Assembly (NCBI RefSeq): GCF_030708075.1
Contig: NZ_CP117982.1
Span: forward strand, 372,001 to 436,000
Direction: 5' to 3'
Source: Candidatus Epulonipiscium viviparus
Lineage (GTDB): Bacteria; Bacillota; Clostridia; Lachnospirales; Cellulosilyticaceae
DNA: 64,000 nt
Shown: one piece after another, positions 13,214-52,788 of the stretch
How positions within the stretch are numbered: the stretch's first letter is position 1
Layout of the letters: the number at the start of each line of letters is the position of its first letter
Notes under the pieces: generated by a model
What the model was told of the DNA's origin: nothing
The model's input: the letters and a program-made list of their open reading frames with translations, nothing else
Databases searched by the model: none
Made by a program: the position numbers and the translations under genes

Positions 13214-13284
13214 GCGGGTGTAGTTCAATGGTAGAACACCAGCCTTCCAAGCTGGTTACGTGGGTTCGATTCCCATCACCCGCT
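13214..13284 (+). tRNA. tRNA-Gly (anticodon TCC)
   Basis: The cloverleaf has acceptor GCGGGTG paired with CACCCGC, an anticodon loop CTTCCAA and a GGGTTCGATTCCC T-arm. CCA is not encoded. First gene of a six-tRNA cluster. Confidence 0.95.
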
Positions 13285-13288
13285 GTAT

Positions 13289-13362
<74 letters not shown>

Positions 13363-13366
13363 GTAT

Positions 13367-13441
13367 GGTGGGAATAGCTCAGTCGGTTAGAGCGCCAGAT
13401 TGTGGTCCTGGAGGTCGTGGGTTCGATCCCCATTTTCCACC
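13367..13441 (+). tRNA. tRNA-His (anticodon GTG)
   Basis: The anticodon loop TTGTGGT gives GTG. An extra G at position -1 (13367) pairs with the C discriminator (13441), the identity mark of tRNA-His. The acceptor is GTGGGAA with TTTCCAC. Confidence 0.95.
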
Positions 13442-13448
13442 CTTACAT

Positions 13449-13520
13449 AGGGTTATCGCCAAGCGGTAAGGCACAGGATTTTGATTCCTGCATTCGAAGG
13501 TTCGAATCCTTCTAGCCCTG
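13449..13520 (+). tRNA. tRNA-Gln (anticodon TTG)
   Basis: Acceptor AGGGTTA pairs with TAGCCCT. The loop TTTTGAT gives anticodon TTG. The D-arm GCCAAGCGGTAAGGC is typical of bacterial tRNA-Gln. Confidence 0.95.
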
Positions 13521-13532
13521 AATTTATAATGT

Positions 13533-13605
13533 GAGTCACTAGCTCAGTAGGTAGAGCACTTGACTTTTAATCAAGTGGTCCCGGGTTCGAGCCCCGGGTG
13601 GCTCA
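13533..13605 (+). tRNA. tRNA-Lys (anticodon TTT)
   Basis: Acceptor GAGTCAC pairs with GTGGCTC. The anticodon stem CTTGA/TCAAG holds the loop CTTTTAA. The T-arm CCGGGTTCGAGCCCCGG is strong. The discriminator base is A. Confidence 0.95.
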
Positions 13606-13611
13606 GTATAT

Positions 13612-13693
13612 GCGGATGTGGCGGAATTGGCAGACGCACTAGACTTAGGATCTAGCGCCGAGAGGTGTAAGGGTTCGACTCCCTTCATCCGCA
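13612..13693 (+). tRNA. tRNA-Leu (anticodon TAG)
   Basis: Acceptor GCGGATG pairs with CATCCGC. The anticodon stem CTAGA/TCTAG holds the loop CTTAGGA. A long variable arm marks it as class II. Confidence 0.95.
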
Positions 13694-13702
13694 TATTATA
13701 GA

Positions 13703-22008: not shown

Positions 22009-22059
22009 TTGAATAAAAAATGTAGATGTCGATTGCATTTTGGTGTCGCAGTCGGATAA
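22009..22059 (+). CDS. Possible 16-residue leader peptide ahead of the methylase module
   Basis: A TTG codon directly after AAGGAGAGGA opens a 16-codon frame, M-N-K-K-C-R-C-R-L-H-F-G-V-A-V-G, ending at TAA 62 bases before the first methylase. The ribosome site is convincing, the spacing a little short. No terminator/antiterminator pair is obvious, so attenuation is a guess. It could also be chance. Confidence 0.3.
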   Translation: MNKKCRCRLHFGVAVG

Positions 22060-22121
22060 AAATAAGATGTGATTACGAATTGTGTAAAGCAAGTCGATAT
22101 ATTTAAGGGAGATGATCTATT

Positions 22122-25010
22122 ATGAATACAGCATTTATTGAAACTCAGTTTCCTGTAAGCAAAATTAGTAAGGAGAGCTACAAGGAACGCAAGGCCGGAA
22201 AGAGTCAGACGTTAACTGGGCTGGGAAAGTGGTGGGGCAGAAAACCGCTAGTACTTGTGCGGGCAACGATCATAGGGTGCCTGATGCCAGCATCGGATGA
22301 TTTAAAAGCTGATATGGAGATTTTCTTGAAGATTATGACTATGGATGATGACAGTTTGCTAGCGCGAAAGGAAAAGGCTATTCCGATAAAGGCGCTATAT
22401 GCTATGGCGCGAGAGAATTCTGCATTTGCGGAAAATATAGATGCGTGGTTTAGAGCCGAGGGGGAAGCGGTAAAAATTCAGATTGGTCAAGATAGAAAAG
22501 CAATTGAAGCCGCCGTGTTTGCGACGCTCTCGTATGATGAAAAATTAAAATATTGCAGTAGGCCAGAGCATCTAAAAAATATAAGGGAAGAAAGCTGGAG
22601 AGAAATCAATAAACATCTTGGCACGTCGGCAACATCTATAGCTGAGTTGGTGGAGCAATTATCTGTGGAAAAATATGGGCGTGTTGCTAAGATTGGCGAT
22701 TGCTTTGCAGGAGGGGGGAGCATTCCGTTCGAGGCTGCAAGAGTAGGCGCAGAGGCGTATGCTGCAGATCTAAACCCTGTGGCAGCGATGCTGAATTGGG
22801 CAAATTTTAACATTTTGGGTGCATCAGACGCGGAAGTTGCCCAGATCAAAGCATTTCAGAAGCAGGTGTATGACGACGTTGTTGCAGAAACAGAAAGGCT
22901 GGGAATTGATCGGAACGAGCATGGGGATAGAGCATTGAACTATCTGTATTGCGTTGAGACTGTGTGTCCAGAGTGTGGAGTGAAAGTTCCGTTGTCAACA
23001 TCATGGATTATAGGAAATAATATTACTAGGACTGTAGCGCAACTAAAATTGAGAGAGGATAATACATACGATATTGAAATCAAAATGAACGCGACAAAAG
23101 AGGAGATGGCAACGGCCAAAGTAGGGACACTGGTAAAGTCGAAGCTTGCATGTCCGGCATGTAAAAAAATGACGCCGATCTCAACTATTAGAGGGGACAA
23201 AACTGTTGATGGCAGGGCGGTTTATGGATTGCGCAAGTGGGAGAAAGCCGAGTTTGAATTTGCCGAAGGAGATGTATATAGCGAGCGGCTCTATGCTATC
23301 CAATATGAAATAGCGAATGTACAAGCAGGTAGAAAATCGAAGAGATATTACGCATCACCGAGTGGGCGTGCGATGGCAAATGAAGCGAGAGTACGCTCGA
23401 TTGTTGCAGAGAATATAGTGAACTGGCAGATAATGGGAATAATACCAAGCGGGGCAATTATCGAGGGATGTAAAACTAATGAAATAATAAGAACCCGTGG
23501 TTGGGCATATTGGCATCAACTGTTTAATCCGCGGCAGCTGTTGATGTTGTCTATGCTAATTAAAAAAGTGAGCGATGAGACAGATACAAACAACAAGATA
23601 GCAGGAGTGTTGGGGATAAATAAAGTGTTGGATTATAATTCGCGATTATGCATATGGAATGCCGCAAAAGAGCATGTTTCATTTACATTTTACAATCAAG
23701 CATATAACACGCTGATGAACTTTGCAACGCGCGGTGTCGAAACAATAATGTCGAGCTGGAACTATGATATTAATAATTGTAAGTTGAGCGGAAAGAGTGA
23801 TGTGGAGTTAATAGAGGGCAGAGCGGTCAAAAAACGTTGTGATATATGGATAACAGATCCTCCGTATGCAGATGCGGTAAGCTACCATGAGCTGTCTGAA
23901 TTTTTCTTGGCCTGGAGCAAGCACCTGATCAAAGCAACATTTCCGGAGTGGTATACAGATGCAAAACGAATATACGCCATAAAGGGCAACGAGGATTTTG
24001 CAGAAGATATGATCGAGATTTATACTAATCTGACACAGCATATGAGCGACGATGGCTTGCAAGTGGTGATGTTTACGCACTCAGACCCCGCAGTGTGGGC
24101 ACAGTTAGCATTGATTATGTGGAAGGCAGGGCTTCGGGTGACTGCTGCTTGGAATATAGCAACGGAGACAGAGTCTGGGGGGCTAAAAGTTGGCAACTAT
24201 ATAAAGGGTACAGTAATTTTGATATTGCGAAAGCAACAGGAGTGCAACGACGCGTTTCTAGATGAGATCGAACTGGATATCAAAAAAGAAGTGAAGAGGC
24301 AGATAGAGTTAATGCAAACGATCGATCAGAAGGATGCCCCGAACTTTGCGGATCCAGATTATGTATTGGCAGCGTACGCGGCGGCGATCAGAGTATTGAC
24401 TTCCTATGTAGAGATCAGCGATCTGGATTTAACTGCAGAGCTCGACATAGCGATAGCGTCTCCGGCCAAGAGCGAGATTGTACAAATTGTAAATAAGGCC
24501 AAGACGATTGCGTACGAGTATATTCGCCCAGCAGGATTTGATAAGCATCAGTGGAACAATTTATCGTCTGCAGAACGATTTTGTATTATGGGGTTAGTGG
24601 GTGAGATGAAAAATGATTATCATCTGAGTATGTACCAAGAGTTTGCTAAAGGTTTTGTAATGGAAGATTATGGGAAATTGTTAGCATCTCCGGCGGCGAA
24701 TGAGACAAGATTGATGACCCCAGTGGAGATGGGGAACCGCATTATGCAAGCTGAGTTTGAGGCAACATTACTTAGAATCGTATTTCGGGCAATAAATATG
24801 GGCATCGAAGAAGGTGAAAATCCGCAGATGGCATTGCTATATATAAAAGAGAAGGTGGGAGAAAGCTATAGCAAAAAAAGAGGTTTGATCAAAGAATTGT
24901 TGAAGTTTCTAGGAAGTGTAAATAGTGTTAATAACATGACTAAGCATTGGAAAGCGAGTGCGGACATGGCAAATCTAATAGCAATGATGATTGAAGATGG
25001 GTTGGCTTAA
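22122..25010 (+). CDS. DUF1156 DNA methyltransferase, copy 1
   Basis: A 962-residue amino-methyltransferase. The DUF1156 N-terminus (K-W-W-G-R-K-P-L-V-L-V-R) precedes SAM-binding motif I, G-D-C-F-A-G-G-G-S-I-P-F near residue 192. Two CxxC pairs (C-P-E-C near 283, C-P-A-C near 344) suggest a zinc ribbon. Catalytic motif IV, D-P-P-Y, is near 579, marking N6-adenine or N4-cytosine methylation. The motif I to IV gap of nearly 390 residues can hold a target-recognition region. ATG follows AAGGGAGATGATCTATT. First full gene of a four-gene module with DUF3780, a paralogous methylase and a DUF499 ATPase. Homologues of these families occur together in phage-defence loci. No restriction nuclease is fused or adjacent. 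Confidence 0.9.
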   Translation: MNTAFIETQFPVSKISKESYKERKAGKSQTLTGLGKWWGRKPLVLVRATIIGCLMPASDDLKADMEIFLKIMTMDDDSLLARKEKAIPIKALYAMARENSAFAENIDAWFRAEGEAVKIQIGQDRKAIEAAVFATLSYDEKLKYCSRPEHLKNIREESWREINKHLGTSATSIAELVEQLSVEKYGRVAKIGDCFAGGGSIPFEAARVGAEAYAADLNPVAAMLNWANFNILGASDAEVAQIKAFQKQVYDDVVAETERLGIDRNEHGDRALNYLYCVETVCPECGVKVPLSTSWIIGNNITRTVAQLKLREDNTYDIEIKMNATKEEMATAKVGTLVKSKLACPACKKMTPISTIRGDKTVDGRAVYGLRKWEKAEFEFAEGDVYSERLYAIQYEIANVQAGRKSKRYYASPSGRAMANEARVRSIVAENIVNWQIMGIIPSGAIIEGCKTNEIIRTRGWAYWHQLFNPRQLLMLSMLIKKVSDETDTNNKIAGVLGINKVLDYNSRLCIWNAAKEHVSFTFYNQAYNTLMNFATRGVETIMSSWNYDINNCKLSGKSDVELIEGRAVKKRCDIWITDPPYADAVSYHELSEFFLAWSKHLIKATFPEWYTDAKRIYAIKGNEDFAEDMIEIYTNLTQHMSDDGLQVVMFTHSDPAVWAQLALIMWKAGLRVTAAWNIATETESGGLKVGNYIKGTVILILRKQQECNDAFLDEIELDIKKEVKRQIELMQTIDQKDAPNFADPDYVLAAYAAAIRVLTSYVEISDLDLTAELDIAIASPAKSEIVQIVNKAKTIAYEYIRPAGFDKHQWNNLSSAERFCIMGLVGEMKNDYHLSMYQEFAKGFVMEDYGKLLASPAANETRLMTPVEMGNRIMQAEFEATLLRIVFRAINMGIEEGENPQMALLYIKEKVGESYSKKRGLIKELLKFLGSVNSVNNMTKHWKASADMANLIAMMIEDGLA
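22134..23305 (+). repeat. Long direct repeat, copy 1 (5' part of methylase 1)
   Basis: This stretch is nearly identical to 25555-26726, offset by 3421 bases. The encoded residues 5-394 differ at about 23 positions. The similarity drops sharply after about 23305. Confidence 0.85.
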
Positions 25011-25034
25011 TATATATCGAAGGAGGAATCAGTG

Positions 25035-25511
25035 ATGGGATTTGGATTTGATGCGAAAGAGAGTGAAAATCATTTTTATTTGGTGGGGGACAAAAAGATT
25101 GTAGAAGTATATGAGAGATTTCGATGGAACGAAAATGAGCAAAAGATTTCGAAACAAGATGTACTGAAAGTGAGGATCTCGAGAAAAAAATGGTCTAGAG
25201 TTTCAATGGCAATAACGCAAACTTTTAATATGCAACTAAAAGCAGAAGGCAAGAAAGGCGCGAGGTTTTTAGTTGCTGGCACTGCTATTGAGCGTCTATA
25301 CGGCAAAGAGTTGGTATTGCTATTATGGGCAATAGAAAATGTGGATGCTGCAGAAGAGATCGCGACAGCAGTAAATAATTGGAATGGGTTGACGGTGGAG
25401 GAGAGATGGTGGCTGTACACTATGACTAATGCTACAGCGGGGAAGGTTGATGATAACACAGGGTGGCGAGTAGCGTTGAAGTATGCTTTCTGCGATATAG
25501 CAGTAGCATGA
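25035..25511 (+). CDS. DUF3780-family protein
   Basis: A 158-residue protein of DUF3780, a family that travels with DUF1156 methylases and DUF499 ATPases. Recognised parts are the G-F-G-F opening, R-I-S-R-K-K-W-S, the L-Y-G-K-E-L-V-L-L-L-W-A-I-E block, and V-E-E-R-W-W-L-Y-T-M-T-N-A-T. Function is unknown. The tight coupling to methylases suggests a specificity or accessory subunit, an inference only. AGGAGG lies 8 bases before ATG 25035. A GTG one codon earlier is possible. It sits 24 bases after methylase 1 and 28 before methylase 2. Confidence 0.85.
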   Translation: MGFGFDAKESENHFYLVGDKKIVEVYERFRWNENEQKISKQDVLKVRISRKKWSRVSMAITQTFNMQLKAEGKKGARFLVAGTAIERLYGKELVLLLWAIENVDAAEEIATAVNNWNGLTVEERWWLYTMTNATAGKVDDNTGWRVALKYAFCDIAVA

Positions 25512-25539
25512 TGCTCGGATAATTCGGATAAGGAGAAAC

Positions 25540-28416
25540 ATGATGAAGAGGACATTTATTGAAACTCAGTTTCCTGTAAGCAAAATTAGCAAGGAGAGCT
25601 ACAAGGAACGCAAGGCCGGCAAGGGTCAGACGCTAACTGGGCTGGGAAAGTGGTGGGGTAGAAAACCGCTAGTACTTGTGCGGGCAACAATTATAGGGTG
25701 CCTGATGCCAGCATCGGATGATTTAAAAGCTGATATGGAGATTTTTTTGAAGATTATGAGTATGGATGATGACAGTTTGCTAGCGCGAAAGGAGAAGACT
25801 ATTCCGATAAAGGCGCTATATGCTATGGCGCGAGAGAATTCTGCATTTGCGGAAAATATAGATGCGTGGTTTAGAGCCGAGGGGGAAGCGGTAAAAATTC
25901 AGATTGGTCAAGATAGAAAAGCGATTGAAGCCGCGGTGTTTGCGACGCTCTCGTATGATGAAAAATTAAAATATTGCAGTAGGCCAGAGCATCTAAAAAA
26001 TATAAGTGAAGAAAGCTGGAGCGCAATCAATAAACATCTCGGCACATCAGCAACATCTATAGCTGAGTTGGTGGAGCAATTGTCTGTCGCAAAGTATGGG
26101 CGTGTTGCTAAGATTGGCGATTGCTTTGCAGGAGGGGGGAGCATTCCGTTCGAGGCTGCAAGAGTAGGTGCAGATTCGTATGCTGCAGATCTAAACCCTG
26201 TGGCAGCGATGCTGAATTGGGCAAATTTTAACATTTTGGGCGCATCAGATGCGGAAGTTACCCAGATCAAAGCGTTTCAGAAGCAGGTGTATGACGACGT
26301 TGTTGCAGAAACAGAAAGGCTGGGAATTGATCGCAACGAGCATGGGGATAGAGCATTGAACTATTTGTATTGCATCGAGACTGTGTGTCCAGAGTGTGGA
26401 GTGAAAGTTCCGTTGTCAGCATCATGGATTATAGGAAATAATATTACTAGGACTGTAGCGCAACTAAAATTGAGAGAGGATAATACATACGATATTGAAA
26501 TCAAAATGAACGCGACAAAAGATGAGATGGCTGCGGCAAAAATAGGGACGCTGGTGAAGTCGAAGCTTGTGTGTCCGGCATGTAAAAAAATTACGCCGAT
26601 TACAACTATCAGAGGGGACAAAACTATTGACGGGCGGGCGATTTATAAGTTGCGTAAATGGGAGAAAGACGAGTTTGAATTTGCCGAAGGAGATGTGTAT
26701 AGCGAGCGGCTCTATGCTATTAAATATGAAGCAAAAGATAGCCATAGATACTATAGCGCACCGAGCGTGAGAGCGATGGAGAATGAAGCCAGGGTGCGAG
26801 ATATTGTTGTCGCAAAGCTGTGTGAATGGCAAAATAAGGGAATAATACCGAGTAGTAAAATCGAAGCTGGTGGAAATACAAGCCAATTGCAGCTAGAGCG
26901 TGGTTGGACATATTGGCATCAGTTGTTTAACCCGCGGCAATTACTGACGCTAGCAATGCTAGTAAAAAGGATTAGTGAGGAAAAAGAAACGAACAAAAAA
27001 GTTGCGGGGCTGCTGGGCATCAACAAGGTAATAAATTGGAACTCGCGCTTGTGTATATGGAATTTTAACGCCGAAAAAATGGAGCAAACTTTCTATAACC
27101 AAGCGTATAATACTCTAGTAAACTTTGGAACTCGCAGTGTGAGTGCGTTATCAAGAATATGGAACTATGATATCAATAAGCAGGTATTGAACACAAAGCA
27201 TCAGGTGAAGTTGGAAGAAGCAAGAGCGTTGAGAGAATTTTGTGATATATGGATAACAGATCCTCCTTATGCAGATGCGGTGCGCTATCATGAGCTATCA
27301 GAAATTTTTTTGGCGTGGGACAAGCATTTGATTAAAGAAGTATTTCCGCAATGGTATGCGGACTCAAAGCGAGTATATGCCGTGAAAGGCGATGAAAGTT
27401 TTGCAGAAGAGATGACCGAGATTTATGCCAATCTGACGCAGCATATGAGCGACGATGGACTGCAGGTGGTGATGTTTACGCACTCGGATCCAGTAGTGTG
27501 GGCGCAGTTGGCGTTGATTATGTGGAAGGCGGGGCTTCAGGTGACTGCTGCCTGGAATATAGCAACGGAGACAGAGTCCGGAGGGTTAAAAGGCGGCAAT
27601 TATATAAAGGGGACAGTAATTTTGGTATTGCGAAAGCAACAGGAAAACAGCGAGGTGTTTTTAGATGAGATCGAATTTGATATTAAGCAAGAGGTAAAAA
27701 GGCAGAGCGAGCTAATGCAAGAGGTTGACAATAAAGATGCTCTCAACTTTGCAGAGCCAGATTATGTGTTGGCAGCGTACGCGGCGGCGCTCAGAGTATT
27801 GACTTCTTATTCAGATATCAGCGATCTGGATTTAACTGCAGAACTCGATATAGCGATAAAATCTCCAGCCAAAAGTGAGATCGTAAAAATTATAGAGAGA
27901 GCAAAAACGCTCGCATATGAATATATCCGTCCGGCAAAGTTTGAAAAGCATCAGTGGAGGGAGCTTTCATCTGCAGAACAATTTTATATTAAAGGTTTGG
28001 ATGGTGAAATGAAGGGCGTTTATCAGCTAAGTATGTATCAAGAATTTACGAAAGGCTTTAAAATGGAAAATCATGGAAAGTTGATGGCAACATTAATAGA
28101 GAATAAAGCGAGGTTGATGACCCCGGTGGAGATGGGAGAACGCATTATGCCGAGCGAGTTTGAGGCAACACCACTTCGGAGCGTATTTCGGGCAATAAAT
28201 ATGGGCATCGAAGAAGGAGATGATCCGCAGCTAGCAGTAAAATATATGAAAGATAAATTGGGAGATGACTACGAAAAAAAGAGAGGCATGATTATAGCAA
28301 CATTGGGATTTGTAGCAAGTGCGAGAAGCATTAACAAAATGAGTACGCATTGGAAAGCAAGCGCGGACATGGCAGATCTGATTGCTTCGCTAATAGGAGA
28401 TGAATTAACTTCGTGA
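25540..28416 (+). CDS. DUF1156 DNA methyltransferase, copy 2
   Basis: A 958-residue paralogue of the methylase at 22122. Residues 1-394 are about 94% identical, including motif I and the zinc ribbon. The stretch from about 395 to the D-P-P-Y motif is only about half identical and has length changes. The part after motif IV is again highly similar for about 150 residues, then the last 200 diverge moderately. Both copies keep all catalytic motifs, so both look active. The divergence falls where an alpha-class methylase would carry its target-recognition domain, suggesting two different target sites. Two ATG codons are adjacent. 25543 is better spaced from AGGAG. It ends 12 bases before the DUF499 gene. 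Confidence 0.9.
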   Translation: MMKRTFIETQFPVSKISKESYKERKAGKGQTLTGLGKWWGRKPLVLVRATIIGCLMPASDDLKADMEIFLKIMSMDDDSLLARKEKTIPIKALYAMARENSAFAENIDAWFRAEGEAVKIQIGQDRKAIEAAVFATLSYDEKLKYCSRPEHLKNISEESWSAINKHLGTSATSIAELVEQLSVAKYGRVAKIGDCFAGGGSIPFEAARVGADSYAADLNPVAAMLNWANFNILGASDAEVTQIKAFQKQVYDDVVAETERLGIDRNEHGDRALNYLYCIETVCPECGVKVPLSASWIIGNNITRTVAQLKLREDNTYDIEIKMNATKDEMAAAKIGTLVKSKLVCPACKKITPITTIRGDKTIDGRAIYKLRKWEKDEFEFAEGDVYSERLYAIKYEAKDSHRYYSAPSVRAMENEARVRDIVVAKLCEWQNKGIIPSSKIEAGGNTSQLQLERGWTYWHQLFNPRQLLTLAMLVKRISEEKETNKKVAGLLGINKVINWNSRLCIWNFNAEKMEQTFYNQAYNTLVNFGTRSVSALSRIWNYDINKQVLNTKHQVKLEEARALREFCDIWITDPPYADAVRYHELSEIFLAWDKHLIKEVFPQWYADSKRVYAVKGDESFAEEMTEIYANLTQHMSDDGLQVVMFTHSDPVVWAQLALIMWKAGLQVTAAWNIATETESGGLKGGNYIKGTVILVLRKQQENSEVFLDEIEFDIKQEVKRQSELMQEVDNKDALNFAEPDYVLAAYAAALRVLTSYSDISDLDLTAELDIAIKSPAKSEIVKIIERAKTLAYEYIRPAKFEKHQWRELSSAEQFYIKGLDGEMKGVYQLSMYQEFTKGFKMENHGKLMATLIENKARLMTPVEMGERIMPSEFEATPLRSVFRAINMGIEEGDDPQLAVKYMKDKLGDDYEKKRGMIIATLGFVASARSINKMSTHWKASADMADLIASLIGDELTS
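25555..26726 (+). repeat. Long direct repeat, copy 2 (5' part of methylase 2)
   Basis: Partner of 22134-23305 in the same orientation. Recombination between the two would remove DUF3780 and leave one hybrid methylase. Confidence 0.85.
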
Positions 28417-28428
28417 TAAGGAGATGAT

Positions 28429-31400
28429 ATGATGAAATCGGTTAAAAGTTTATTGGTGCCAAGGAGCTCGGTTTTTAAGAATACAACTAGGGAAGATGTT
28501 TTGAACTTAACGGATTTTGCAGAAGGAAAAATTGATGCGACGGCCTTTTTTGAGGAGAACTTTCAGACCGCTGGAATGAGCGCACTATTCGAGGCCGCAT
28601 TTAGTCGGTTTAGAGGAGAGTCGGAAACGGGCGTGATAAAGCTGACACAAGCAATGGGTGGAGGTAAGACGCATTCGATGTTAGCATTGGCTTTGCTAGC
28701 GGAGAACGCAGAGTTGAGAAGAGGCGTTATTGCAGTAGATGATGTTGGAGAGATCAAGGTTGTGACATTTTCTGGTCGAGAGAATGCGCCGCGAGGGTTG
28801 TGGGGACACCTAGCACAGCAGTTAGGGAAAATGGAAACGTTTGGTAAATATTATGCGCCACTGCAAGCACCGGGGGAATCCGATTGGATAAAGCTATTAG
28901 CAGGTGAGAGAATTTTGATTTTGCTAGATGAACTACCGCCGTATCTGGAGAATGCCAAGGCAATTGCAATAGGAAATTCAGATTTGGCAAAGGTAACGGT
29001 AACGGCACTGGCTAACTTGTTTTCGGCATTGGGTAAAGAGCAGCTGGCTAATGTATGCCTAGTATTTTCAGATTTGCGTGCGGCATATGAATCGGGAAGT
29101 CAGCTGCTAAGGTCTAGCTTTAGGGAGCTGGAAGCGGAAACAAATCGAGTGGCAAAAGAAGTGACTCCCGTTGCTTTAAACAGCGATGAAATTTATTCAA
29201 TTTTACATACGAAGCTGTTTGAGAATACTGCAGGAGAGGAGGAGATCAAGGATATTGCAACAGCGTATAAGAAAGCGGTGGCGAAGTCGGTAAAGCTGGG
29301 GTTAACAAACTATAATCCAGATGCTGTATTTGCAGGAGTAAAAGACTCGTATCCATTTCACCCATCCATTAAGCCGCTGTATGCAAGATTTAAGGAGAAT
29401 CCAAACTTTCAGCAAACGAGGGGGCTCATCAGATTTATGCGTTTGGTGGTGAGGCAGTTTTATGAATCTGGTGCGGCAGAGAAAAGATATTTGATTAACG
29501 TATTTGATTTTAATTTGAATGAGCAGAAAATTTTGAGCCAGATTTATGAAATCAACCCATCTTTGGATGCGCCCATTAATCATGACATAGCTCAGAATGG
29601 CAAGGCAATTGCAGAGATAGTGGATAGCCAATGCGAAGGTGATGCGGCGCAGGAGGTTGCAAAGTTGCTGTTGGTATCGTCATTATCGGCAACACACAAC
29701 GGCTTGCTGGGCTTATCAAAGTCTGAGATCGTGGGATATTTGAGTAGTCCAGAAGCAAATATCGAGCGTATCAAAGATGCATTGGGGCAACTAAATCAAA
29801 AATGTTGGTATCTAAAAACTGATAATGTAGGAAGAGTGTATTTTCAGAACACCAAAAATATGGTGGCGCAGCTAAACGAATTGGCGCAGGGATATTCTGA
29901 TGAAGATGCGCGCGGGAAGTTGCGCAAGATGCTTAGGGAGATATTTAAGCCTGTGGTGGGGAAATATTATGACCGAGTGTATGTATTTCCGGAGATATCA
30001 GACATTAAACTGGATGAAAATAAAGTAGCATTGGTGATATATGAGCCATACAAGAGGTTGCATCCGATGCTGGAAAAATTTTATGAACAGGTGCAGAGAA
30101 AAAACCGAGTGCTATTTTTGTCGGGACAACGCAACATGCTAGAAAAGTTACATGAGAATGCAAAGATGGTTCTAGCAATAGAGTCTATTTATGGAAATTT
30201 AAAGGAGGAAGGGAATACGCAGCTTAAGGAAGCGGAAATTATGAAGGATAGGCAGATGCAAAACTTGATTTCAACGATTCGGGAGCTGTTTGTAACGCTA
30301 TATTTTCCAACCAAAAATGGCATTGATTCGAAAGATTTTAGGCTAGAATTTACAAAGATGAAGTATAATGGTGAGGAGCAAATCGCCAAATGTTTGCTAG
30401 ATGCAAGAAAGTATGAGGAAGTGGAAGAACAGGGGTTAGAAATATTGCGTAAAAAATGTGAGCAACGTATATTTATAGCAAAGACGATGACGTTAAAACA
30501 ACTGAAGGAGCGTGCGGCAACGGAGCCGTCGTGGCAATGGTATCCGGCGGGGCAACTAGAGAAGCTGCTAAAAGCCTGTATTGCCAAAGATGCGTGGCGC
30601 GAGAAAGATGGCTACATTATAAAAGGGCCGTTTGTAGATCCAACAGAAGTAAAGGTGGAGCAAGTAAATTACGATGAGAAAAGTAATAAATTTAGGCTAA
30701 AAGTTATGGGCATAGGAGGAGAAGTCTATTATGCAAAGAGCGGCGCATTGGCTGAGACAAAATTGTTAGAAGAAGAGTTGGAAACTTCAGAATGTAGATT
30801 AAATTTTAGATGCGTAGACCCAACCGGAAAGCGTGTAGAAGGAGAAATGGTAAAATTTGTGGGCAAGGTGCCAATAGCGGGAGAGCAATATGAAGATGAA
30901 GGAGCGCAGATATTTAGAATTGTGGCGCATCCGGAATATGCAGTAAAATATACAATTGATGGAAGTAACCCGAAGGAGAATGGCGAGCTGTATGCAGAAC
31001 CGATAGAAGTCGCAAAAGGATGCCGTGAAATTTTGGTGGCAGTATTTTTGGATAAGACGCTAGTGGAGGAGCGCAGATTTGAGGTGATAGAAGTGGTTGA
31101 CGGAGTGAGGGCAGTAAATAAGAAAGAGCGACTGATATATATGAGGCAAAAGCAATGGCGCAATACTGCGACGACATATAAAGACTTCGAAGAGCTAGAG
31201 CGATTTGCTAAAATACGGGGAGCCACTATAGCGATATCAGATAAAACGATGAGTGTAAATTTATCGATGAAAGAAACCGATGAGCCGGCAAAGATATTGC
31301 AGCTGATTAATGATATAAGAGAAACCGTATTTAAGGAGAGAGATGTCGAGATAATATCTGCGTATCAGGCGCTGGAATTTAAGACTGGAAAGTTGTTTTT

Positions 31401-31470
31401 GGACTGGGCAAAGAAAAATAAATTGGAGGTAGAAGATCTGAGAAAAGATGGGGAAATTATACAGCAATAA
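28429..31470 (+). CDS. DUF499 AAA-type ATPase
   Basis: A 1013-residue P-loop ATPase of DUF499. Walker A is A-M-G-G-G-K-T-H near residue 76. Walker B is I-L-I-L-L-D-E-L near 162. A further conserved block, H-P-S-I-K-P-L-Y-A-R-F, lies near 310. A C-terminal segment near 840-885 (Y-T-I-D-G-S-N-P) resembles a chitobiase-type C-terminal beta-sandwich, a feature normally seen in secreted glycosidases. DUF499 partners DUF1156 methylases and often a superfamily-2 helicase in putative defence loci. No helicase is here. AAGGAGATGAT precedes the ATG. Last gene of the module, followed by a terminator. Confidence 0.88.
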   Translation: MMKSVKSLLVPRSSVFKNTTREDVLNLTDFAEGKIDATAFFEENFQTAGMSALFEAAFSRFRGESETGVIKLTQAMGGGKTHSMLALALLAENAELRRGVIAVDDVGEIKVVTFSGRENAPRGLWGHLAQQLGKMETFGKYYAPLQAPGESDWIKLLAGERILILLDELPPYLENAKAIAIGNSDLAKVTVTALANLFSALGKEQLANVCLVFSDLRAAYESGSQLLRSSFRELEAETNRVAKEVTPVALNSDEIYSILHTKLFENTAGEEEIKDIATAYKKAVAKSVKLGLTNYNPDAVFAGVKDSYPFHPSIKPLYARFKENPNFQQTRGLIRFMRLVVRQFYESGAAEKRYLINVFDFNLNEQKILSQIYEINPSLDAPINHDIAQNGKAIAEIVDSQCEGDAAQEVAKLLLVSSLSATHNGLLGLSKSEIVGYLSSPEANIERIKDALGQLNQKCWYLKTDNVGRVYFQNTKNMVAQLNELAQGYSDEDARGKLRKMLREIFKPVVGKYYDRVYVFPEISDIKLDENKVALVIYEPYKRLHPMLEKFYEQVQRKNRVLFLSGQRNMLEKLHENAKMVLAIESIYGNLKEEGNTQLKEAEIMKDRQMQNLISTIRELFVTLYFPTKNGIDSKDFRLEFTKMKYNGEEQIAKCLLDARKYEEVEEQGLEILRKKCEQRIFIAKTMTLKQLKERAATEPSWQWYPAGQLEKLLKACIAKDAWREKDGYIIKGPFVDPTEVKVEQVNYDEKSNKFRLKVMGIGGEVYYAKSGALAETKLLEEELETSECRLNFRCVDPTGKRVEGEMVKFVGKVPIAGEQYEDEGAQIFRIVAHPEYAVKYTIDGSNPKENGELYAEPIEVAKGCREILVAVFLDKTLVEERRFEVIEVVDGVRAVNKKERLIYMRQKQWRNTATTYKDFEELERFAKIRGATIAISDKTMSVNLSMKETDEPAKILQLINDIRETVFKERDVEIISAYQALEFKTGKLFLDWAKKNKLEVEDLRKDGEIIQQ

Positions 31471-31488
31471 GAAATAACGTTGATAAGT

Positions 31489-31518
31489 AGCATAGGCGAG
31501 CGAACCTATGCTATTTTA
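31489..31518 (+). terminator. Terminator of the methylase/ATPase module
   Basis: AGCATAGG and CCTATGCT form an 8-bp stem with an 8-base loop, then ATTTTAAT. It lies 18 bases after the DUF499 stop. It may also serve the converging liv operon, though the minus-strand tail is poorer. Confidence 0.75.
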
Positions 31519-49149: not shown

Positions 49150-52100
49150 ATGGAAATAAATATTAGAGCAGCAGTGGCAATATTGATGAGCATTGCAATT
49201 GGAGCGCCCCCAGTTTCTGCAGTAGAATTTATTGATACCCAAAGTCATTGGGCCAAAAAAGAGATCGATGAATTCTCGGATATGGGTGTTGTGTTTGGAT
49301 ATGCAGATAACACGTTTAAGCCTAATGAATTTATGACAAGAGGTGAGTTCGCTATGTATATACAAAATATATTTGGCTTACCTCCATATTCAGCGGAAAA
49401 AAAGTATACTGATGTAGGAGCTTATGAACCCAGAAGTTATGCTATATATGCTGTTGCGGCAGAGGGGATAATGAATGATTACGGTACAGAGTTTCGACCA
49501 AATCAGTTAATATCGAGAGAGGAAGCAATGTATGCTATAGCAAATGCGTATGAAATCGATACGAGTAATATGGCCGCGATGTTTGTGGATTCGCATATGA
49601 TAAGTGAATGGGCAAAGAAAAGTGTGAATGCGATGATATCTAATGGATATATTTCAGGATTTCCGGATGGGACAATGCGGCCATGGACAAATATAACTAG
49701 AGCGGAGTTTATTACAATGGTATCTAAGGTTTCGGAAAAAATAATTAATAGGCCTGGTGAGTACGTGGAAGGGTATGTGGATTCGAGCGTGGTGATAAAT
49801 TGTACTAATGTGACGTTAAAAAATACAACGATACGAGGTAACTTATATATAAATGAAGGCATAGGAGCAGGAGATGTAACTCTTGAAGGGGTGACAGTTC
49901 TAGGGACAGTATTTATAAATGGAGGCGGGGATAAGCCGATTGTGCTTAAGAACTGCAAAATGGCTGAAATGGTAGTGGACAAATATGACGGGAACGTGAA
50001 TATTACAGGAGATGCAAATACAAAAATTACCAATTTACAGTTTAAGAGTGCAGGAACAGTGGCGGGTGAGATAAAGGTAAGAGATGCTCTTGTGGAAGCA
50101 AAAGGTGTAAAGATTGGTTTTGTACCCAACTGGATTGCTATAACGGCGGAGAGTGTCTCGATGAAGAATAATGAATATACCGAAAAAGAGGCAAGAGAGT
50201 ATGCGCGAGACTATTCATCGGAATGGGAAGAGTGGATTACAGAAGTTTTACAAAAACAGCCTATGCTTCCAAAAGAATTGCAAGATGAATTGCAGATGGC
50301 TAGAATCACTGAACACAATACATATCTGGAGCATAAATCAATTATTGGCGATAAGCCACAAGTTGTTGTTAGCAGTTCGAGTAGCAATTCGAGTAATAAT
50401 TCGGGAAGTAGCTCCAAAGAGAAGGTTAAGCGTCCGTACACAGATATTGATGAAGGAAATTACACTGGAACGCAGACGGTAGAACTAAAGACATCCACCA
50501 GCGGTGCGCAAATATATTACACAACTGATGGGACAACGCCAACTACATCATCGAAAAAATATACGGGGCCGATAACTGTTTCAACAACGACGACGCTCAA
50601 GGCTATTGCAACAAAAAGTGGGATGGAAGCATCATCAGTTATGACGGCAGAATATGTAATTTCTATAGCTAAAGCGGAAATGCCAAAAGTTAGCATCGCA
50701 GCTGGAGAATATACTACGGCACAGAGCATCGAGTTATCGACGGCTACGGCAGATGCGCAAATATATTACACAACTGATGGGACAACGCCAACTGCATCAT
50801 CGAAAAAATATACGGGGCCGATAACTGTTTCAATAACGACGACGCTCAAGGCCATTGCAACAAAAAGTGGGATGGAAGCATCAGCGGTTATGACGGCAGA
50901 ATATGTAATTTCTATAGCTAAAGCGGAAATGCCAAAGGTGAGTATCGCAGCTGGGGAATATACTACGGCACAGAGCATCGAGTTATCGACGGCTACGGCA
51001 GATGCGCAAATATATTACACAACTGATGGGACAACGCCAACTACATCATCGAAAAAATATACGGGGCCGATAACTGTTTCAACAACGACGATGCTCAAGG
51101 CTATTGCAACAAAAAGTGGGATGGAAGCATCATCAGTTATGACGGCAGAATATGTAATTTCTATAGCTAAAGCGGAAATGCCAAAGGTGAGTATCGCAGC
51201 TGGAGAATATACTACGGCACAGAGTGTTGAGTTATCGACGGCTACGGCAGATGCGCAAATATATTACACAACTGATGGGACAACGCCAACTGCATCATCG
51301 AAAAAATATACGGGGCCGATAACTGTTTCAACAACGACGACGCTCAAGGCTATTGCAACAAAAAGTGGGATGGAAGCATCAGCGGTTATGACGGCAGAAT
51401 ATGTGATCACTGATGCTAAATGGAAATTGGTTTGGGCAGATGAATTTGACGGAGAGAAAGTAGATGCTTCGAAATGGGCATTTCAAATTGGTACGGCGGC
51501 GGAAAACGGCGGTCCAGCGAATTGGGGGAACAATGAACTACAATTTTATACAGAGGAAAATACGCAAGTTGTAAATGGTGAGCTAGTTATTACCGCTAAA
51601 AAAGAAGCCAAGGATGGGATGAGTTATACATCATCGAGGCTGTGGACCAACCCTGCTGCACAAGAAAATACGGCAGCAGAATTTGAAGGATTTTCCAATT
51701 TATATGGTCGCATTGAAGCCGCAATTACTCTGCCGGCAGGAGACGGGATGTGGCCAGCATTTTGGATGTTGCCTGCAACTGACGAGTATGGAACTTGGGC
51801 ATCAGGAGGGGAGATCGATATCGTCGAAGCAAGAGGGCGAGAGCCGCATAAAGTTGATGGCACCATTCATTACGGAGGTAGCTGGCCGAAAAATAAATAT
51901 TCTGGCGGTCATTACACTTTTCCAAATGGGGAAGATCTGTCGACCAAACATGTTTATGCAATAGAATGGCATCCAGAGGAGATAAACTGGTATGTAGATG
52001 GCAACTTGTATCACACAGAAACTGAATGGTATACGGAAGCGATAGATCCCGCAACTGGCGAGGCATATAAATTTCCCGCTCCGTTTGATAAGGAATTTTA

Positions 52101-52788
52101 TATTTTACTAAACTTAGCAGTGGGCGGAAATTATGATGGCGGCACTAGACCAGGCGAGGATTTTACCGCAGCAGAAATGAAGGTGGACTATGTGCGAGTG
52201 TATGAGATAGGCGAGGGATTCGAGAAACCTGCAGCTCCAAAAATTGAGAGCGTCGCAAATCAGGGCGATACGAAGGCAATTACGTTTGAGGCTCCGGCAG
52301 ATGGAGCAACGATATATTACACCACAGATGGTACAAAACCTACTGAAGATAACTATTTGGATATTGCAACAGCATATGAAGAGCCTATTGTAATTGTGGA
52401 AGATACAGTAATTTCGGCCATTGCCGTATCTGCGAAGGGTGTAGCATCTAAGGCTATGGTGGAGGCAGTGAGATTTGATACTGCTGAAACTGGAAATTTA
52501 GTGGAAAATGGCGACTTCTTTGCACCAACTGAGGGGAATTGGCACACCTGGAAGTCTACGAACGACTCTGTACATCCGCCAGCTCCAGTTGTTGCAGGTG
52601 AAATGGTATTGGAAATCGATAACACCAAGGCGGGAGAGTTTTGGCATACGCAATTATTTCAAGAGGGCATCGATGTAGCTGCAGGAAAAAAATATACGTT
52701 GACATTTGATGCAAAGAGTTCGGAAGCGAGGCCGATTAAAGTTGAAGGTACGTTTAATCGAAACAACCTTCGATGCGGTAGATGTTAA
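49150..52788 (+). CDS. S-layer-anchored GH16 endo-beta-glucanase, laminarinase-like
   Basis: A 1212-residue multidomain surface enzyme. Signal peptide, then three SLH domains (about 25-200; H-W-A-K-K-E-I and F-P-D-G-T-M-R-P) that bind cell-wall polymers. A beta-rich linker follows, a Ser-rich stretch near 400, and four chitobiase-type C-terminal repeats (about 430-755). The GH16 domain (about 760-1020) carries G-N-N-E-L-Q-F-Y-T, W-P-A-F-W-M-L-P and the catalytic E-I-D-I-V-E (Glu888, Asp890, Glu893), the bulged form of laminarinases and agarases; the rest fits laminarinases best. A fifth chitobiase-type repeat and a CBM4/9-like module follow, the latter cut short after K-V-E-G by a sequence junction near 52750. 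It should cleave beta-1,3-glucan at the cell surface. Confidence 0.9.
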   Translation: MEINIRAAVAILMSIAIGAPPVSAVEFIDTQSHWAKKEIDEFSDMGVVFGYADNTFKPNEFMTRGEFAMYIQNIFGLPPYSAEKKYTDVGAYEPRSYAIYAVAAEGIMNDYGTEFRPNQLISREEAMYAIANAYEIDTSNMAAMFVDSHMISEWAKKSVNAMISNGYISGFPDGTMRPWTNITRAEFITMVSKVSEKIINRPGEYVEGYVDSSVVINCTNVTLKNTTIRGNLYINEGIGAGDVTLEGVTVLGTVFINGGGDKPIVLKNCKMAEMVVDKYDGNVNITGDANTKITNLQFKSAGTVAGEIKVRDALVEAKGVKIGFVPNWIAITAESVSMKNNEYTEKEAREYARDYSSEWEEWITEVLQKQPMLPKELQDELQMARITEHNTYLEHKSIIGDKPQVVVSSSSSNSSNNSGSSSKEKVKRPYTDIDEGNYTGTQTVELKTSTSGAQIYYTTDGTTPTTSSKKYTGPITVSTTTTLKAIATKSGMEASSVMTAEYVISIAKAEMPKVSIAAGEYTTAQSIELSTATADAQIYYTTDGTTPTASSKKYTGPITVSITTTLKAIATKSGMEASAVMTAEYVISIAKAEMPKVSIAAGEYTTAQSIELSTATADAQIYYTTDGTTPTTSSKKYTGPITVSTTTMLKAIATKSGMEASSVMTAEYVISIAKAEMPKVSIAAGEYTTAQSVELSTATADAQIYYTTDGTTPTASSKKYTGPITVSTTTTLKAIATKSGMEASAVMTAEYVITDAKWKLVWADEFDGEKVDASKWAFQIGTAAENGGPANWGNNELQFYTEENTQVVNGELVITAKKEAKDGMSYTSSRLWTNPAAQENTAAEFEGFSNLYGRIEAAITLPAGDGMWPAFWMLPATDEYGTWASGGEIDIVEARGREPHKVDGTIHYGGSWPKNKYSGGHYTFPNGEDLSTKHVYAIEWHPEEINWYVDGNLYHTETEWYTEAIDPATGEAYKFPAPFDKEFYILLNLAVGGNYDGGTRPGEDFTAAEMKVDYVRVYEIGEGFEKPAAPKIESVANQGDTKAITFEAPADGATIYYTTDGTKPTEDNYLDIATAYEEPIVIVEDTVISAIAVSAKGVASKAMVEAVRFDTAETGNLVENGDFFAPTEGNWHTWKSTNDSVHPPAPVVAGEMVLEIDNTKAGEFWHTQLFQEGIDVAAGKKYTLTFDAKSSEARPIKVEGTFNRNNLRCGRC
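50430..51410 (+). repeat. Four tandem 249-bp repeats inside the GH16 gene
   Basis: The segment beginning AATATATTACACAACTGATG recurs at 50511, 50760, 51009 and 51258, exactly 249 bases apart. Each copy encodes an 83-residue chitobiase-type domain with Y-Y-T-T-D-G-T-T-P-T. Copies differ at only a few positions, indicating recent expansion. The left edge of the first copy is diverged. Confidence 0.93.

What the first reader, a model, noticed from the sequence alone, without database searches (positions are those of the whole stretch)
22009..31518. Compact module of two DUF1156 methylases, DUF3780 and a DUF499 ATPase without helicase or nuclease
Seen: four closely spaced plus-strand genes bounded by a candidate promoter and a terminator. 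Known: DUF1156, DUF3780 and DUF499 families are found together, usually with a helicase, in putative phage-defence loci of the helicase-methylase-ATPase kind. Here the methylase is doubled, DUF3780 sits between the copies, and the flanking genes are unrelated (solute-binding lipoprotein, liv operon), so no helicase or nuclease belongs to the operon. Inference: a distinct or minimal system that marks DNA at two sites and uses the large ATPase for sensing or exclusion.
Basis: partly seen in the sequence, partly recalled or inferred. Interest (0 to 1): 0.85.

Follow-up and report, generated by a model that had tools for sequence, protein, structure and literature searches.

The report
Anti-phage operon: doubled methylase, no nuclease
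In the giant gut bacterium Candidatus Epulonipiscium viviparus, an anti-phage gene set that normally pairs one DNA-marking enzyme with a DNA-cutting helicase has lost the cutter and doubled the marker, yet all four remaining genes look actively maintained, so it may now only mark DNA rather than destroy invaders.

Summary
Window 22122-31470 (+) encodes DUF1156 N6-MTase A, DUF3780, DUF1156 MTase B (79% identical to A) and a DUF499 ATPase. The genome is Candidatus Epulonipiscium viviparus or very close to it. The genes belong to the "Type-2 BREX-related (BR)" family of PMC12839542, not to Hma (Type-1 BR). In 24 of 24 relatives with full context (Clostridia, viral contigs, plasmids of several phyla) the order is DUF499-DUF3780-MTase-PLD/HKD helicase, with one MTase. 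Here the order is permuted, the MTase is doubled, and a PLD-helicase profile finds no copy, intact or broken, in the single-contig chromosome or a second assembly of the species. All four genes show within-species pN/pS of 0-0.14, like neighbouring liv genes. The two MTases are mosaic: N-terminal halves recently homogenised (dS 0.06-0.20), the segment between motifs I and IV as different as between distant species. Best reading: the modification half of a BR system, kept and doubled after loss of its nuclease, marking two sequences. Methylation, specificity and phage effect are untested. The same genome also carries a type III R-M whose Res lacks its nuclease domain. New variant of a known kind.

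The parts
22122..25010 (+). MTase A, DUF1156 N6-adenine methyltransferase, 962 aa; motif I GDCFAGGGS and motif IV DPPY intact
   Evidence: NCBIfam NF042963 1200 bits, cut-off 1000
25032..25511 (+). DUF3780 protein, 159 aa; core conserved, about 25 C-terminal residues shorter than relatives
   Evidence: Pfam cut-off passed, NCBIfam NF042961 equivalog cut-off not reached (123 vs 200)
25540..28416 (+). MTase B, DUF1156 N6-adenine methyltransferase, 958 aa, 79% identical to A; motifs I and IV intact
   Evidence: NCBIfam NF042963 1193 bits, cut-off 1000
28429..31470 (+). DUF499 AAA+ ATPase, 1013 aa, Walker A (GGGKTHS) and Walker B (LLDE) intact; C-terminal Fn3-like sandwich region then an RRM-like beta-alpha pattern; fold resembles BrxC
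   Evidence: NCBIfam NF042962 749 bits, below cut-off 1200
22122..23200 (+). N-terminal ~360 codons of MTase A, 93-98% nt identical to the same part of MTase B (25540-26620): recently homogenised tract
23380..23760 (+). segment of MTase A between motifs I and IV (about codons 420-546), synonymous sites saturated against MTase B, 55-60% aa identity: presumed target-recognition region
31486..31513 (+). hairpin followed by AUUUU, probable terminator
   Evidence: dG -15.4 kcal/mol, z -4.3

Best explanation
This is the modification half of a Type-2 BREX-related system, kept after loss of its PLD (HKD) helicase-nuclease and enlarged by duplication of the methyltransferase. DUF499 (a BrxC-like AAA+ ATPase), DUF3780 and an MTase probably form a methylation complex. 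The two MTases share their SAM-binding half but differ in the segment between motifs I and IV, so they probably place N6-methyladenine in two different sequences, or on the two strands of one asymmetric site. With no cutter the locus would not restrict. Its likely benefit is protection of the many chromosome copies against incoming restriction or BR systems, or an epigenetic role. Shown here: gene content, loss of helicase, homology, intact motifs, purifying selection, mosaic divergence. Inferred: complex formation, methylation, two specificities, benefit.
For: Family and motif evidence. 24/24 fully readable relatives have DUF499-DUF3780-one MTase-PLD helicase. PLD-helicase profile finds none in the own chromosome or same-species draft with stops read through, only SNF2/DEAD-box matches of other kinds; the only PLD-domain proteins are a 705-aa and a 518-aa frame, the sizes of polyphosphate kinase and cardiolipin synthase. 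Within-species pN/pS: MTase A 0.14, DUF3780 0, MTase B 0.07, DUF499 0.13; liv genes 0-0.15. Mosaic MTase pair: dS 0.06-0.20 in codons 1-360, saturated in 427-546, about 0.6 or more elsewhere; in residues 431-570 A and B share 58%, different relatives 55%. DUF499 model best matches BrxC structures 9zll and 9zdx. In type I BREX, BrxC, PglX, BrxB and PglZ are needed for methylation while BrxL is dispensable (PMC13326643). A second R-M system in this genome also keeps Mod but lacks the Res nuclease domain.
Against: No methylation data. Purifying selection rests on only 53 differences between two assemblies of one species, one with ambiguous bases. The MTase model has low confidence (pLDDT 61), so the target-recognition assignment rests on motif positions, divergence and the description in PMC12839542. 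A pure modification complex need not keep DUF3780 and the large ATPase unless they are required for methylation, which is known only for BREX, not BR. A divergent nuclease in trans cannot be excluded.
Confidence: 0.5

Rival explanations
1. A nuclease-free exclusion system: the BrxC-like DUF499 ATPase with DUF3780 reads unmethylated DNA and blocks phage replication or transcription by binding, while the two MTases mark self at two sites.
For: Two MTases, intact Walker motifs and DUF3780, a proposed reader of modified DNA (PMC12839542), are all kept under selection. BREX inhibits phage DNA replication (PMC13326643). DUF499 model resembles BrxC.
Against: Every relative examined pairs the set with a PLD helicase. 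PMC13326643 states that BR loci invariably encode an endonuclease. BREX itself has the nuclease PglZ, absent from this operon.
Confidence: 0.2
2. A complete defence system whose nuclease or helicase lies elsewhere in the genome, for example the type III Res protein or an unrecognised nuclease.
For: The literature reports that 17% of Type-2 BR taxa lack the HKD helicase and use another nuclease. The genome has a second R-M locus with a helicase subunit.
Against: Reported replacements lie beside the locus; the neighbours here are transport and tRNA-modification genes. The Res protein ends before its endonuclease domain. No PLD helicase in the genome. Other ResIII hits look like PriA, UvrB, Mfd, RecG and DEAD-box proteins by length and N-terminal sequence.
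Confidence: 0.13
3. A decaying remnant with no current function, caught after helicase loss.
For: DUF499 and DUF3780 fall below NCBIfam equivalog cut-offs and DUF3780 is shortened. Congener G002 has the liv and lipoprotein flanks but no module beside them. R-M loci decay often (general knowledge).
Against: All four frames intact in two assemblies; pN/pS 0-0.14; no helicase fragment in window or genome; the MTases diverged for long (saturated dS in part) while both kept all catalytic motifs; genes reordered.
Confidence: 0.12

Closest known systems
Type-2 BREX-related (BR) system (PMC12839542), in PADLOC as DUF1156_MTase / DUF3780 / DUF499 / PLD_Helicase
   Same: DUF1156 MTase, stand-alone DUF3780, DUF499 ATPase with Fn3-like domains before the C-terminal RRM-like domain
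   Different: No PLD (HKD) helicase here; MTase doubled; order MTase-DUF3780-MTase-DUF499 instead of DUF499-DUF3780-MTase-helicase
Hma system (Type-1 BR; HmaA helicase, HmaB MTase, HmaC ATPase)
   Same: Distant homology: HmaB 104 bits, HmaC 171 bits
   Different: Hma has no DUF3780 and its helicase carries a different nuclease; scores are far lower than to the Type-2 models (850 and 621 bits)
BREX (BrxC, PglX/BrxX)
   Same: DUF499 fold model best matches BrxC; methylation is separable from restriction in BREX (PMC13326643)
   Different: No PglZ, BrxA, BrxB or BrxL in the operon; DUF499 lacks the BrxC C-terminus and has Fn3-like and RRM-like regions
Orphan (solitary) DNA methyltransferases
   Same: DNA marking without a cognate nuclease
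   Different: Here the MTases come with the ATPase and DUF3780 of the parent system, and in two copies

Membership tests
Type-2 BR system | DUF1156 N6-MTase | tested here: met
   two copies; Pfam, PADLOC, NCBIfam cut-offs passed
Type-2 BR system | stand-alone DUF3780 within the locus | tested here: met
   Pfam 123.5 bits, cut-off 27; below the stricter NCBIfam equivalog cut-off
Type-2 BR system | DUF499 ATPase, in 53% of taxa with Fn3-like domains before an RRM-like domain | tested here: met
   PADLOC DUF499 620.6 bits over nearly full length, Fn3_assoc/CHB_HEX hits, beta-rich 723-885 then beta-alpha pattern in a medium-confidence model; below the NCBIfam equivalog cut-off 1200
Type-2 BR system | HKD (PLD) nuclease-helicase, or another nuclease beside the core genes | tested here: not met
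   none in locus, flanks or genome
Type-2 BR system | gene order DUF499-DUF3780-MTase-helicase | tested here: not met
   24/24 fully readable relatives have it, the window does not
Hma (Type-1 BR) | HmaA helicase, HmaB, HmaC, no DUF3780 | tested here: not met
   no helicase; DUF3780 present; weak HmaB/HmaC scores
Type I BREX | PglZ, BrxB, BrxC (DUF6079), PglX, BrxA, BrxL | tested here: not met
   operon has none of PglZ, BrxA, BrxB, BrxL by Pfam/PADLOC; rest of the genome not searched for them
Functional anti-phage system | reduces phage infection | not testable with these tools
   needs plating assay
Active N6-adenine methyltransferases | methylates DNA at a motif | not testable with these tools
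   motifs I and IV conserved; needs long-read methylation data

The most novel reading that the evidence does not exclude
A nuclease-free BREX-related system with two methylation specificities in a giant, extremely polyploid bacterium: self is marked at two sequences and the BrxC-like ATPase with DUF3780 silences or blocks unmarked DNA without cutting. Cutting would be costly in a cell with very many chromosome copies that may never all be marked at once.
Probability: 0.15. Interest if true: 0.85.

Novelty: new variant of a known kind. Interest (0 to 1): 0.52.

Why it matters
BR systems are described as always carrying a nuclease. A maintained locus without one separates the modification half from the restriction half by natural deletion. 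It predicts that DUF499 plus DUF3780 are part of the methylation complex, which is a direct test of how BREX-like systems split marking from attack. A doubled MTase that differs mainly between motifs I and IV offers a ready-made pair for locating the target-recognition region of this MTase family. The host, a giant polyploid cell, raises the question of whether cutting-type R-M is disfavoured there, since its type III system also lacks the nuclease domain.

Tried and rejected
Hma membership: rejected on scores and DUF3780. Helicase in trans: profile search of own genome, no hit; the SNF2 hit is a 954-aa SNF2 protein that looks housekeeping, PLD-domain hits are a 705-aa and a 518-aa frame. Helicase pseudogene: no remnant in window or genome with stops read through. 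Clean empty site in congeners: the flank contig of G002 ends in repeats and livF there is followed by other genes, so no junction could be read. Phage-borne copies: only distant Sulfolobus virus MTases. PDB sequence searches gave no meaningful relative of the MTase or of the ATPase core; only carbohydrate-enzyme beta domains matched DUF499 at about 817-900. MTase fold: mean pLDDT 61, core unresolved, not used. Promoter scan: no excess over chance. Strain differences as proof of ongoing gene conversion between A and B: nearly every variant fits a simple derived mutation, so not claimed. The single genome-contig scan found only the same-species contig.
Full report
What is there. The module runs from 22122 to 31470 on the plus strand: MTase A (22122-25010), DUF3780 (25032-25511), MTase B (25540-28416), DUF499 ATPase (28429-31470), with 12-28 nt between genes. 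Pfam and PADLOC assign all four to the DUF1156 / DUF3780 / DUF499 set. NCBIfam's stricter 'anti-phage-associated' equivalog cut-offs are passed by both MTases but not by DUF3780 (123 of 200 bits) or DUF499 (749 of 1200), so those two are divergent members. A hairpin plus AUUUU at 31486-31513 is a good terminator candidate; promoter-like sites are no more frequent than chance.

Whose genome. The window lies at 372001-436000 of a single 3.28-Mb contig. The only close relative found in the genome collection is Candidatus Epulonipiscium viviparus N.t. morphotype B (contig NZ_ABEQ01000082.3), 99% identical in MTase B, with the same four genes and the same liv-operon flank. Epulopiscium are giant bacteria with extreme polyploidy (PMC4789555 abstract; PMC8245194).

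What the family normally looks like. PMC12839542 defines DUF499-centred BREX-related (BR) systems; Type-2 BR has DUF499, a DUF1156 MTase, a stand-alone DUF3780 and an HKD (PLD) nuclease-helicase. The HKD helicase is present in 83% of 1120 taxa, other nucleases being encoded alongside the core loci in the rest; 53% of Type-2 DUF499 proteins have tandem Fn3-like domains before an RRM-like domain. I found no mention there of a doubled MTase. I collected relatives by DUF3780 searches of about 780 genomes of the class and order, a viral-contig scan and a plasmid search. In all 24 loci with complete context the order is DUF499-DUF3780-MTase-PLD helicase with one MTase, sometimes with extra genes before the helicase: L020-L022, L024-L026, L053, L054, L056, L058-L062, L064-L067, L077-L079, L082-L084. 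Two more are cut on the left but show MTase-helicase (L055, L057). All 20 plasmid records have one MTase place each. The helicases match PADLOC PLD_Helicase at 777-840 bits in the three tested.

What is missing. A profile of six PLD helicases finds no such protein in the own chromosome, the same-species draft or three congeners; the weak hits are SNF2-frame and DEAD-box matches. Stops are read through in that search, so a broken copy should have appeared. tblastn of the helicases against the window finds nothing. Own-genome SNF2 and PLD searches give only a 954-aa SNF2 protein and frames of 705 and 518 aa, the sizes of polyphosphate kinase and cardiolipin synthase. The left and right neighbours are a solute-binding lipoprotein, queA and the liv operon.

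Decay or maintenance. Between the two assemblies of the species the four genes differ at 38 synonymous and 15 nonsynonymous places; pN/pS is 0.14, 0, 0.07 and 0.13, the same range as liv genes (0-0.15). Both MTases keep the motif I and motif IV residues shared with seven relatives; DUF499 keeps Walker A and B; DUF3780 keeps its core but lacks about 25 C-terminal residues. Loss of the helicase is therefore derived, but the remaining genes look constrained.

The MTase pair. A and B are 79% identical, each 42-52% to relatives, so the duplication is younger than the split from those relatives. Divergence is uneven: codons 1-360 have dS 0.06-0.20, codons 427-546 have saturated synonymous sites and 55-60% aa identity, and the rest dS about 0.6 or more. 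In residues 431-570 A and B share 58%, while different relatives share 55% on average; in 131-390 A and B share 93%. The simplest reading is recent homogenisation (gene conversion) of the N-terminal, SAM-binding half and retained difference in the segment between motifs I and IV, where PMC12839542 places the target-recognition insert. Different specificity is thus likely but inferred. An AlphaFold2 model of MTase B had low confidence (61) and was not used.

The ATPase. The model (pLDDT 66, pTM 0.38) shows an N-terminal AAA+ region, a beta-rich region at 723-885 and a C-terminal beta-alpha pattern like an RRM. Foldseek's best PDB matches are BrxC from Acinetobacter BREX (9zll, 9zdx), then ORC. 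[quoted passage not shown] By analogy, DUF499 with DUF3780 could be the methylation scaffold that remains useful after loss of the effector. This step is inference.

A parallel in the same genome. At about 891.4-895.4 kb lies a type III R-M pair: Mod of 640 aa, and a Res of 687 aa that aligns only to residues 1-579 of the 970-residue EcoP15I Res and stops before the endonuclease domain. Congener G002 has an open frame of 1033 aa. So the two R-M-like loci studied in this genome both keep modification and lack a recognisable nuclease. Two cases do not make a rule, but the pattern is testable.

Judgement. I file it as a new variant: an effector-less, MTase-doubled derivative, most likely modification-only (0.5), less likely nuclease-free exclusion (0.2), nuclease in trans (0.13) or decay (0.12).

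Noticed in passing
L076 5426-9424 (own genome, about 891.4-895.4 kb): Type III R-M pair with intact Mod but a Res of 687 aa that ends before the endonuclease domain; congener G002 has an open 1033-aa frame.
   Followed up: partly
window 49150-52788: 1212-aa protein with SLH domains, GH16 domain and several Fn3_assoc/CHB_HEX_C_1 repeats, the same domain families found in the DUF499 C-terminus.
   Followed up: partly
window 13214-13694: Array of six tRNA genes (Gly, Arg, His, Gln, Lys, Leu) in 480 bases.
   Followed up: no
L022 8924-9859, L023 2814-4262, L065 8211-8947 and 11867-15327, L064 11940-13397, L084 9178-10210: Extra genes inserted inside BR loci around the MTase: a Mrr-type restriction enzyme, putative ATP-binding regulators, and VapC-type toxin-antitoxin genes.
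   Followed up: partly
L067 1-5113: A Type-2 BR system on an Acinetobacter baumannii conjugative plasmid sits beside Tn7-like transposition genes (TnsD, TnsE).
   Followed up: no
L047 9980-10460: Tandem repeats of about 120-130 bases upstream of the lipoprotein gene in congener G002, shortly before the contig ends.
   Followed up: no
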